The notes under the pieces are model-generated. The model did not search any database, had not been told where the DNA came from, and worked only from the letters and a program-made list of their open reading frames with translations. A DNA stretch of 64,000 nt from an uncultured Kordia sp. (GTDB lineage Bacteria > Bacteroidota > Bacteroidia > Flavobacteriales > Flavobacteriaceae), in the NCBI RefSeq assembly GCF_947496985.1, contig NZ_CANMEZ010000009.1, positions 1-64,000 of the forward strand. The letters run 5' to 3'. Every line of letters begins with the position of its first letter. Within the stretch, counting starts at the first letter, position 1. Both the position numbers and the translations under genes were made by a program. Positions 42,952 to 47,760 of this stretch are shown here, in pieces.

Positions 42952-43146
42952 CTTCCTGCAACTCTGCGACAAGCTTTCGGGAAACTTCAGAAGCGTCTTG
43001 CAGCTCTGCGACAAGCTTCCGGGAAACTTCAGAAGCGTCTTACAGCTCTGCGACAAGCTTTCGGGAAACTTCAGAAGCGTCTTGCAACCCTGCGACAAGC
43101 TTTCGGGAAACTTCAGGAGTATCTCACAGCCCTGCAATAAGCTTCT
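42952..43146. repeat. 42-bp minisatellite, four full copies and two partial
   Basis: CTGCGACAAGCTT recurs at 42964, 43006, 43048 and 43090, with a decayed copy at 43132 (CTGCAATAAGCTT), always 42 bp apart. Each unit contains AAGCTTTCGGGAAACTTCAG, itself a partial dyad. Because 42 is a multiple of three, three frames are open through the array, but no start context or homology supports a protein. Probably non-coding. Confidence 0.93.
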
Positions 43147-43257: not shown

Positions 43258-43782
43258 ATGATTTACATTGCCATCTTACGTGGAATCAACGTTTCAGGAA
43301 GTAAAAAACTGCCAATGGCAGAACTTCGAATGTTACTCTCTAATTTAGATTTCGAAGAAGTTCAGACGTATATTCAAAGCGGAAATGCCGTTTTTAAATC
43401 TGAAGAAAAAAACCAAGGAAAATTAGGTAGTCAAATAGCAGAAGCAATCAAAAAACAATACGATTATGATGTGCCTGTATTGGTCAAAACCATTGCGCAA
43501 TGGAAAACGGCGATAGCAAACAATCCATTTACAGAAGAAGATATTTCAAAACAAGCAATTACGTTTTTAGCAAACAAACCAGAAGAAAAAATAATTGAGA
43601 TTGATAGCAAAGACGATCGTTTTGAAATTCTCAATTCGGAAGTATATCTCTATTGTCCAAATGGTTTCGGACGTAGCAAGCTTACAAACAATCTTTTTGA
43701 GCGCAAACTTAAAACGCAGGCAACGACAAGAAATTGGAAAACGATTTATAAATTGTTAAATCTAGCGGAAGCGATGGAATAG
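43258..43782 (+). CDS. DUF1697 family protein
   Basis: 174 aa from ATG 43258. The N-terminus MIYIAILRGINVSGSKKLPMAELRMLL and YIQSGNAVFKS are signatures of this family; the C-terminus KLTNNLFERKLKTQATTRNWKTIYKLL fits too. The fold is two ferredoxin-like halves. The function has not been established. It stands between the minisatellite and the palindrome-flanked GIY-YIG remnant. Confidence 0.88.
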   Translation: MIYIAILRGINVSGSKKLPMAELRMLLSNLDFEEVQTYIQSGNAVFKSEEKNQGKLGSQIAEAIKKQYDYDVPVLVKTIAQWKTAIANNPFTEEDISKQAITFLANKPEEKIIEIDSKDDRFEILNSEVYLYCPNGFGRSKLTNNLFERKLKTQATTRNWKTIYKLLNLAEAME

Positions 43783-43803: not shown

Positions 43804-43870
43804 TGTCAGTTCGAGCGCAGTCGAGAACAATTAGTAATAAAATAGCATCTCGACTGCGCTCGATGTGACA
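43804..43870. repeat. Palindromic interspersed element, copy A
   Basis: Two 23-bp arms (core TCGAGCGCAGTCGAGA, ends TGTCA/TGACA) pair in 21 of 23 positions around a 21-nt loop. The left arm plus loop start (43804-43841, 38 bp) is identical to copy B at 44224. It lies just upstream of the broken GIY-YIG gene. Confidence 0.93.
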
Positions 43871-43903
43871 AAAAAAAATAAAGTTTTATTAGAAAAAATA
43901 ATC

Positions 43904-44215
43904 ATGAAAACATATTATGTTTATATCTTAAAATGTAAAGACGGATTGTTGTATGTTGGAATGACAAATAATTTAGAAAGAAGAATAATAGAACACAAAA
44001 AAGGAATAAATAAATAATGTTTTACCTATAAAAGAAAACCTTTAGAATTAATATTCTATCAAGATTTTAATGATGTAGAACAAGCAATATATTTTGAAAA
44101 GGAAATTAAAAATTGGAGTAAAAAGAAAAAGTTGGCATTAGCAAAAAACGATTTCGATATGCTTCAAATTTTATCAGAGTGTAGAAATGCTACACACTCA
44201 AAATATAATAAATAA
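43904..44215 (+). pseudogene. GIY-YIG nuclease family gene with one in-frame stop
   Basis: Translation gives MKTYYVYILKCKDGLLYVG then MTNNLERRIIEHKKGINK and a TAA at 44015-44017. The same frame then continues CFTYKRKPLELIFYQDF, then DVEQAIYFEKEIKNWSKKKK and on to a TAA at 44213-44215. Together this is a complete ~104-codon GIY-YIG (UPF0213/YhbQ-like) protein with a single nonsense codon; VYIL/LYVG, the Arg in LERR and the EKEIKNW helix are present. One base change (TAA to AAA) would restore it. It is bracketed by palindromes at 43804 and 44224. Either a recent pseudogene or a sequencing error. Confidence 0.9.
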
Positions 44216-44223
44216 TAGTAAAC

Positions 44224-44289
44224 TGTCAGTTCGAGCGCAGTCGAGAACAATTAGTAATAAATAACATATCTACTGCACTCGATGTGATA
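44224..44289. repeat. Palindromic interspersed element, copy B (decayed right arm)
   Basis: The left arm TGTCAGTTCGAGCGCAGTCG and following bases equal copy A for 38 bp. The right arm (44267-44289) differs from copy A's at four positions, so its hairpin is weaker. It follows the GIY-YIG stop by 8 bp and ends just before the RidA gene. Confidence 0.9.
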
Positions 44290-44307: not shown

Positions 44308-44712
44308 ATGGAAGAAAAAAAAGTAACTCCAAGAGGCGCTTATCCGCACACAAAACGTGTAGGTGATTTTATATATGTATCAGGAACGAGTTCAAGACGG
44401 CCAGATAACAGCATTGCAGGTGTCGATATTATTGACGAAATGGGAACGAAACACCTAAACATTGGTACGCAAACAAGAGAAGTCTTAAAAAATATTGATA
44501 AAAATTTACAAAGTGTAGGGGCAAGTTTGGCAGATGTAGTCGATGTCACTTCGTTTTTAGTTAATATGAATGACTTTGCAGGATACAATAAAGCCTATGG
44601 AGAATTTTTCGATAAAGCAACAGGGCCAACACGCACAACGGTTGCTGTACATCAATTACCACATCCAGATTTAGTAGTTGAAATTAAAGTGGTAGCGTAT
44701 AAAAAACAATAA
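44308..44712 (+). CDS. RidA-family enamine/imine deaminase, probable 2-aminomuconate deaminase
   Basis: 134 aa from ATG at 44308; a GTG at 44284 would start inside palindrome copy B. The RidA/YjgF fold has [12 protein letters not shown] near the N-terminus, the substrate Arg in [25 protein letters not shown] and conserved Glu. The family hydrolyses reactive enamines. Genes for a semialdehyde dehydrogenase and an ACMSD-type decarboxylase follow on the same strand, so the likely substrate is 2-aminomuconate in kynurenine breakdown; this is context inference. Confidence 0.88.
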
Positions 44713-46814: not shown

Positions 46815-46830
46815 TTCAAAATTATAAACG

Positions 46831-46860
46831 TGTCACATAGAGCTAGCGAGATCATCTCAA
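46831..46860. repeat. Decayed palindrome arm between dehydrogenase and SDR genes
   Basis: TGTCACATAGAGCTAGCGAG resembles the family arm (TGTCA..T.GAGCGCAGTCGAG) with several changes. It lies in the 77-bp gap after the dehydrogenase gene. Confidence 0.45.
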
Positions 46861-46891
46861 TACGCACTACTAATATCTCAATACTAAAAGA

Positions 46892-47694: not shown

Positions 47695-47760
47695 TGTCAT
47701 ATTGAGCGCAGTCGAAATGCCTTCTAGTTTAATTGGTTCTCGACTGCGCTCGAACTGACA
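47695..47760. repeat. Palindromic interspersed element, copy C
   Basis: The left arm (TGTCATATTGAGCGCAGTCG) and right arm (TCTCGACTGCGCTCGAACTG and ACA, 47738-47760) pair through the GAGCGCAGTCGA core. A further orphan right-arm end GCTCGATGTGACA lies at 47785-47797. The loop differs from copies A and B. Confidence 0.88.

What the first reader, a model, noticed from the sequence alone, without database searches (positions are those of the whole stretch)
43804..44289. GIY-YIG nuclease gene bracketed by two copies of the same palindrome: possible mobile repeat element
Seen: a palindrome with core TCGAGCGCAGTCGAGA lies 33 bp before and 8 bp after a ~104-codon GIY-YIG gene, and the two copies share 38 identical bases including loop sequence. 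Known: REP palindromes are mobilised by RAYT transposases in other bacteria. Inference: the GIY-YIG nuclease may be the mobility or maintenance factor for this palindrome family, and this copy is a recently inactivated unit.
Basis: partly seen in the sequence, partly recalled or inferred. Interest (0 to 1): 0.78.

Follow-up and report, generated by a model that had tools for sequence, protein, structure and literature searches.

The report
Nuclease gene paired with hairpin repeats
A small DNA-cutting enzyme gene in marine Flavobacteriaceae is usually framed by one specific family of hairpin-forming repeats, and related enzymes by other specific families, which suggests that the enzyme spreads or maintains these repeats; whether it really does so has not been tested.

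Summary
Each unit is an inverted pair of TGTC-tagged palindromes. The gene has an in-frame TAA at codon 38.

Of the best 80 relatives, 78 have the palindrome core within 300 bp of the gene, 61 on both sides, at 108 times the density beyond 1 kb. The commonest form is hairpin, gene, inverted hairpin (~380 bp). Two other GIY-YIG clades have other palindromes: 22 of 22 and 22 of 23 loci from genomes not used to define the motifs. In Kordia the unit sits at two different junctions of one collinear gene cluster. This genome has no Y1 (RAYT-type) transposase hit, and none of 9 Kordia Y1 loci carries the core.

Best reading: a GIY-YIG counterpart of RAYT/REPIN systems for TGTC/CGTC-tagged palindromes. 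Pairing and changed position are shown; that the enzyme does the moving is inferred. Closest known, Ssn nucleases, is recalled only; that paper is not held here.

The parts
43804..43870 (+). left palindrome pair: TGTCA-GTTC-GAGCGCAGTCGA-GAAC (43804-43828) and, inverted, TGTCA-CATC-GAGCGCAGTCGA-GATG (43846-43870)
   Evidence: folds as a long hairpin
43904..44215 (+). GIY-YIG nuclease gene of the A-type subfamily, one in-frame TAA at 44015-44017
   Evidence: PF01541 3.0e-18 with 1 TAA; A1 profile 1.7e-54 over positions 1-103
44224..44289 (+). right palindrome pair, direct repeat of the left one; first arm 44224-44248 intact, second arm decayed
   Evidence: first 38 bases identical to 43804-43841
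47695..47760 (+). gene-less pair of the same palindromes behind the SDR gene (47695-47719 +, 47736-47760 -)
   Evidence: 62 bases of it fold with z -5.0
46815..46891 (.). ALDH|SDR junction, without the gene here; the GIY-YIG unit sits in this junction in three other Kordia (L105, L106, L140)
43258..43782 (+). DUF1697 gene, left neighbour of the unit
   Evidence: PF08002 7.2e-39
44314..44712 (+). RidA-type gene, right neighbour of the unit
   Evidence: PF01042 2.2e-28

Best explanation
This is a decayed copy of a compact two-component element: a ~100-residue GIY-YIG nuclease gene between TGTC-tagged hairpin sequences (5'-TGTC-N-stem-GAGCGCAGTCGA-stem'), with gene-less inverted pairs and single copies of the same hairpins scattered through the genome. 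The enzyme most likely recognises the hairpin (constant tag and loop, variable but self-complementary 4-bp stem) in single-stranded DNA, nicks at the TGTC tag, and so lets the gene-bearing unit and, in trans, the gene-less pairs move or be copied. It would do for TGTC/CGTC-tagged palindromes what RAYT transposases are thought to do for GTAG-tagged ones. Shown here: the pairing, its specificity for three enzyme clades, the unit's anatomy, self-complementary stems, different positions of the whole unit in collinear clusters. Inferred: recognition, nicking, and that the enzyme causes the movement.
For: Association: 218 core hits in 47,486 bp within 300 bp of the gene against 55 in 1,292,206 bp beyond 1 kb, 80 loci. 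Anatomy: nearest copies point outward on both sides in 55 of 80; of the nearest upstream copies 58 of 72 end at most 37 bp before the start, of the nearest downstream ones 59 of 77 begin at most 10 bp after the stop or before it. Stem: 92.7% of cells paired on 62 distinct copies against 56.5% when shuffled and 36-59% when slid; all four stem bases complementary in 279 of 329 hits. Specificity: A 22/22, B 11/11, C 10/10, K 6/8, D 8/19, diagonal 57 of 70 against a shuffled mean of 15, maximum 28; loci of genomes not used for the motifs: B 22/22, C 22/23. A, B, C and K are each one side of a branch. Position: window and L108 carry the unit between DUF1697 and RidA; L105, L106 and L140 carry it between ALDH and SDR with the first junction empty. 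Ends: ALDH|SDR spacers of 7, 9 and 10 bp in L167, L120 and L110; in L134 5 bp, then TGTC...GACA, then 7 bp. Copy number: in Kordia 57-95 tagged copies with an intact gene (5 genomes), 29 in this genome, 1-61 without the gene (5 genomes). Amplification: 8 pairs in G199 with the same or, in one, nearly the same two ends, different middles and mostly different flanks. GIY-YIG residues Y17, G19, R27 and E65 are kept in 80 of 80. No Y1 transposase hit in this genome or in G179, which has 78 copies.
Against: No biochemistry. Ten of 199 genomes have 10 or more core copies but no A-type gene, five of them without any A1-profile hit at 1e-30 (G019, G073, G080, G084, G156). Kordia G202 has 61 copies without an A-type gene. 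Four of 29 family genomes with an A-type gene have no exact core. The gene-bearing unit is mostly in one to three copies per genome at 1e-30. A single palindrome folds no better than shuffles (z +0.3), and 28 of 53 distinct stem pairs are not fully complementary. Five of 8 K-class loci also carry the A motif, and 4 of 10 C-class loci have the C motif in the control stretches 950-1230 bp away (1 of 23). Class D did not pair well (8 of 19), and 28 of 98 GIY-YIG loci fell in no class. Eight of the 11 empty ALDH|SDR spacers are long (72-446 bp), some with other genes or palindromes, so the end evidence rests on three short ones from other genera. No target-site duplication or transposition intermediate was seen. 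Loci are not phylogenetically independent.
Confidence: 0.6

Rival explanations
1. The enzyme is an Ssn-type site-specific single-strand nuclease whose job is to cut its cognate repeats in incoming or replicating DNA (control of transformation or hairpin clearance). Repeats and gene are kept together by selection on that function, and movement of the repeats is a side effect or due to something else.
For: Small stand-alone GIY-YIG protein with a repeated cognate sequence in the same genome; catalytic residues conserved. The Ssn work is recalled (not held).
Against: Such a role does not by itself require the repeats to frame the gene at both ends, nor the whole unit to change junction, nor near-identical pairs to be amplified. 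It does not exclude mobility: both can hold.
Confidence: 0.22
2. The palindromes spread by another route (a Y1 transposase or slippage and recombination at hairpins). The GIY-YIG gene changed place only by recombination between palindromes already present at neighbouring junctions.
For: Palindromes occupy several junctions of the cluster without the gene; repeats on both sides offer homology; palindromes insert alone.
Against: Y1 transposases were not found in 5 of 11 Kordia, including this genome, and none of 9 Y1 loci has the core. It does not explain why enzyme clades have their own palindromes.
Confidence: 0.12
3. Chance: short intergenic spots collect both small genes and palindromes.
For: Both prefer intergenic DNA (general expectation, not measured here).
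Against: 108-fold density, preferred orientation and spacing, clade-specific pairing in held-out loci.
Confidence: 0.01

Closest known systems
Ssn site-specific single-stranded GIY-YIG nucleases with NTS repeats (Neisseria; Chenal et al., Nat Commun 2025; recalled, not held)
   Same: small GIY-YIG enzyme with a repeated cognate sequence in its own genome; thousands of homologues reported, as recalled
   Different: as recalled, the role shown was in natural transformation; I cannot tell whether gene-plus-hairpin units that change place, or these flavobacterial pairs, are already in that paper
RAYT/REPIN systems (PMC3116915, found passages read)
   Same: inverted palindrome pairs forming a long hairpin; one enzyme gene flanked by its own repeat group; several enzyme-repeat pairs
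   Different: GIY-YIG nuclease instead of a Y1 tyrosine transposase; tag TGTC instead of GTAG
CGTC-tagged REPs (Di Nocera 2013, PMC3733652, abstract and found passages read)
   Same: CGTC/TGTC tag at one end, frequent inverted and heterologous dimers, present in Bacteroidetes, some inside genes
   Different: A-type copies have a 4-bp variable stem and a 12-base conserved loop, not an 8-9 bp stem and a 4-5 bp loop; that paper found no dedicated transposase, here a GIY-YIG gene is attached
UPF0213 proteins (PDB 1zg2, 1ywl)
   Same: nearest solved relatives by sequence (9.5e-17, 9e-13) and the only two fold matches with E below 0.001
   Different: match covers profile positions 4-98 and 2-79; their function is not stated in the hits

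Membership tests
RAYT/REPIN | inverted pair of short palindromes forming one hairpin | tested here: met
RAYT/REPIN | Y1 tyrosine transposase gene beside the repeats | tested here: not met
   no Y1 hit in this genome; 0 of 9 Kordia Y1 loci carry the core
RAYT/REPIN | GTAG-type tag | tested here: not met
   the tag is TGTC in 236 of 254 exact-core hits
CGTC-tagged REP super-family | CGTC, TGTC or CCTC tag at one end, unpaired | tested here: met
   TGTC in 236 of 254; invariant in the 62 rows by selection
CGTC-tagged REP super-family | 8-9 bp stem with a 4-5 bp loop | tested here: not met
   covarying stem is 4 bp around a 12-base constant loop; B and C palindromes were not measured
Ssn nucleases | small GIY-YIG protein | tested here: met
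   PF01541 in 14 of 14 rows of A1; model pLDDT 88.8
Ssn nucleases | site-specific cleavage of single-stranded cognate repeat | not testable with these tools
   needs biochemistry
Ssn nucleases | sequence kinship to the Neisseria enzyme | not tested
   neither the paper nor the sequence was at hand

The most novel reading that the evidence does not exclude
Stand-alone GIY-YIG nucleases are the long-missing mobility enzymes of TGTC/CGTC-tagged bacterial palindromes: a class of mobile element in which a GIY-YIG enzyme, not a transposase of any known fold, moves hairpin-ended DNA, with many enzyme clades each tied to its own palindrome.
Probability: 0.5. Interest if true: 0.92.

Novelty: new variant of a known kind. 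Interest (0 to 1): 0.77.

Why it matters
A 2013 survey left open which enzyme, if any, spreads CGTC-tagged palindromes, and found no transposase gene tied to them (PMC3733652, passages). Here a candidate enzyme is tied to such repeats in over a hundred loci (80 A-type, 22 B-type and 22 C-type), with matched enzyme-repeat pairs that can be swapped in the test tube. If true, REP-like mobile repeats arose with at least two unrelated enzyme types. The matched pairs would also be a possible source of sequence-specific single-strand nucleases.

Tried and rejected
Rejected: chance proximity. Rejected: a Y1 transposase as the driver of this palindrome in Kordia. Tried without result: exact insertion ends and target duplications in Kordia (I could not align the intergenic DNA by eye); empty sites by an all-against-all search of flanks (the output was cut), whose top rows were mostly the same locus fetched twice or tandem repeats, but which led to the shared cluster. 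One query (DUF1697) in the script was in the wrong frame; redone. Of ten paper searches eight were used; none of their listings showed a paper on GIY-YIG genes beside such palindromes, but the library holds only open-licence papers and lacks the Ssn paper. The gene-class signatures and motifs were chosen after seeing part of those loci, and four broken genes (L009, L044, L088, L198) were classed by hand; so repeats B and C on loci of genomes not used before: 22 of the 30 B loci and 23 of the 30 C loci fetched, these 30 being the best of the matches listed. D and K had no such second test. The ALDH tree leaves out two of the 23 cluster loci, L109 (ALDH too short) and L113 (not labelled).

Full report
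What is there. Window 43804-44289 holds two direct copies of a 66-67 bp unit around a GIY-YIG gene. Each unit is an inverted pair of 25-base palindromes of the form TGTCA-stem4-GAGCGCAGTCGA-stem4'; the last one is decayed. The gene, 43904-44215, matches PF01541 at 3.0e-18 and has one in-frame TAA at codon 38. The core has 23 exact copies in the genome and the reversed control none. The genus is taken to be Kordia: G179, listed as the same genus, has a contig of the same length as the Kordia periserrulae contig of L105; by the same reasoning G199 is K. aestuariivivens.

Association. An alignment of 14 proteins of the subfamily ('A type', with the C-terminal motif ECRNATH) was used to scan one genome for each of 84,980 species. 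In 78 of 80 the core, with at most one mismatch, lies within 300 bp of the gene, in 61 on both sides; density is 218 per 47,486 bp near and 55 per 1,292,206 bp beyond 1 kb, a ratio of 108. The two misses, L114 and L141, have long ORFs; with a window reaching 90 bp into the ORF end, and the ORF end of L141 set by hand, all 80 have it. The commonest anatomy, 55 of 80, is hairpin pointing outward, gene, hairpin pointing outward. Of the nearest upstream copies 58 of 72 end at most 37 bp before the start; of the nearest downstream ones 59 of 77 begin at most 10 bp after the stop or before it. In the window and other Kordia the arrangement differs, with whole or partial pairs on a side.

The hairpin. 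On 62 distinct copies the 4-bp stem pairs in 92.7% of cells (G-T pairs counted), against 56.5% for shuffled partners and 36-59% for slid partners; all four pairs show changes on both sides, but the shuffles do so as well, so the weight lies on the percentage and the covariation score, 1.02 against 0.33. Of 329 hits 279 have all four stem bases complementary; of 53 distinct stem pairs 25 do. So tag and loop are constant in sequence while the stem is mostly constant only in being complementary, as for a hairpin that is read as a hairpin. A single palindrome is not more stable than shuffles, the inverted pair is.

Pairing is clade-specific. Among 98 GIY-YIG loci from 60 family genomes and Kordia, 70 could be put in five classes by protein signature. 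Palindrome motifs of the own class lie within 250 bp in A 22/22, B 11/11, C 10/10, K 6/8 and D 8/19; the sum is 57 of 70, against a shuffled mean of 15 and maximum of 28 in 20,000 shuffles. Off the diagonal, the A motif is near 5 of 8 K loci and 1 of 11 B loci, the D motif near 1 of 10 C loci; control stretches 950-1230 bp away hold the own motif in A 2 of 22, C 4 of 10, K 1 of 8, B and D none. On loci of genomes not used before: B 22 of 22, C 22 of 23, with at most 2 hits of any other motif; control stretches B 1 of 22, C 1 of 23. A, B, C and K are each one side of a branch in the protein tree (supports 94, 86, 72 and 92; a quick tree of few columns). D is not one group and is not claimed.

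Across genomes. In 199 family genomes the 16-base core occurs in 72. An A-type gene (E below 1e-42, a threshold I chose) is in 29, this genome and three others with a stop flagged. The core is present in 25 of these 29 and in 47 of the other 170; median copies 7 and 0; one-sided Mann-Whitney p 9e-12, not corrected for descent. Against: ten genomes have 10 or more copies and no A-type gene. In Kordia, intact gene: 95, 78, 77, 58 and 57 tagged copies; this genome, with the stop: 29; no A-type gene: 61, 29, 24, 2 and 1 (one-sided p 0.011 with this genome counted among the latter). This fits decline after loss, with G202 (61) as an exception; G202 has a B-type gene (L191) beside which A-like cores lie inside B-type palindromes.

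Movement. In five collinear Kordia clusters the unit is between DUF1697 and RidA in the window and K. aestuariivivens (L108), and between ALDH and SDR in L105, L106 and L140, where the first junction holds no unit. Of the 80 loci, 23 lie in this cluster, at several junctions: ALDH|SDR 11, before RidA 5 (in three of these DUF1697 lies between), RidA|ALDH 4, DUF1697|RidA 1, before ALDH 1, behind ACMSD 1; the other 57 have none of the seven cluster genes. Names other than the Pfam hits (kynurenine pathway, KMO, ACMSD) are from recall. On an ALDH tree of 22 rows the position needs 9 changes, 5 being the least possible; it is still more clustered than shuffled (mean 11.3), and 5 of 19 inner branches are firm. 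Of 11 empty ALDH|SDR spacers three are short, 7 bp in L167, 9 in L120 and 10 in L110; the others are 72-446 bp, some with other genes or palindromes. In L134 the spacer is 5 bp, then TGTC...GACA with the gene inside, then 7 bp. In L125 and L108 the same junction holds a gene-less pair. In G199, of 20 stretches fetched and chosen from the listed copies, eight are pairs with the same two end palindromes (in L233 one of them differs), differing middles and mostly different flanks. In a protein-coding linker, purL by recall, this genome and G179 carry an A-type palindrome, G202 a B-type one, and G206, G199 and G201 a third kind; the other five carry A-like or unclear sequence. So palindromes occur and differ between species without the gene, and the gene-bearing unit has changed position as well.

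Mechanism. GIY-YIG residues Y17, G19, R27 and E65 are unchanged in all 80, although 6 of the 80 ORFs have an internal stop. The AlphaFold model (pLDDT 88.8) matches UPF0213 proteins (E 1.1e-05 and 2.0e-04); Slx1 (E 0.01) and the N-terminal domain of UvrC (E 0.09) follow, and I-TevI at E 1.4 is no more than a hint. A GIY-YIG active site cuts one strand at a time (recalled). The constant tag beside a constant-loop hairpin suggests recognition in single-stranded DNA and a nick at the tag. I infer that this starts movement in cis and in trans. No Y1 transposase hit was found in this genome, in G179, G200, G201 or G207, and none of the 9 Y1 loci found in Kordia carries the core within about 1.5 kb.

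What is known. PMC3733652 (abstract and passages) describes CGTC-tagged palindromes, also with TGTC, in Bacteroidetes among others, mostly as dimers, and says that they apparently lack a dedicated transposase. PMC3116915 (passages) describes RAYT and REPIN. The Ssn nucleases are recalled from a 2025 paper that is not held. If that paper already lists flavobacterial pairs, the pairing here is a new example; units that change place with TGTC ends would still be additional, as far as I recall. I therefore file it as a new variant of a known kind and keep the stronger reading as the novel case.

Noticed in passing
L036, L057, L058, L059 (also L081, L094, L097 by protein): Another GIY-YIG subfamily (REKYLKS type and relatives) seems to sit beside or inside partly duplicated tRNA gene sequence, some with inserted G+C-rich palindromes; tRNA identity judged by eye, and for L081, L094 and L097 only the protein was seen.
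   Followed up: no
L023:1023 (G000:C6:275522) and orthologues L216-L225: In-frame linker of a purL-like gene is a hotspot where different Kordia species carry different palindrome families.
   Followed up: partly
G000:C9:146041-146334 (L014, L016, L214): A second, heavily decayed GIY-YIG gene in the same genome is framed by C-type palindromes (CTGAACTTGATTCAG and relatives).
   Followed up: partly
L040, L010, L207-L209: GSTK-type GIY-YIG genes lie among other repeats, in L040 with the gene itself present twice.
   Followed up: no
L247 and L277 (same loci as L078 and L099): A gene-less copy of the unit's two flanks lies next to the gene-bearing unit (gap 36 instead of 304, and 26 instead of 299 bases).
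   Followed up: no
L226, L227, L232, L239, L242-L244: Several copies in G199 share AT-rich sequence just outside the tag (about AATAAAAT.A.CA.TT, by eye), perhaps a preferred target or part of a larger unit.
   Followed up: no
window 42957-43144: Tandem repeat of 42 bp, 4.5 copies, left of the DUF1697 gene; arrays that look similar by eye lie in L010.
   Followed up: no
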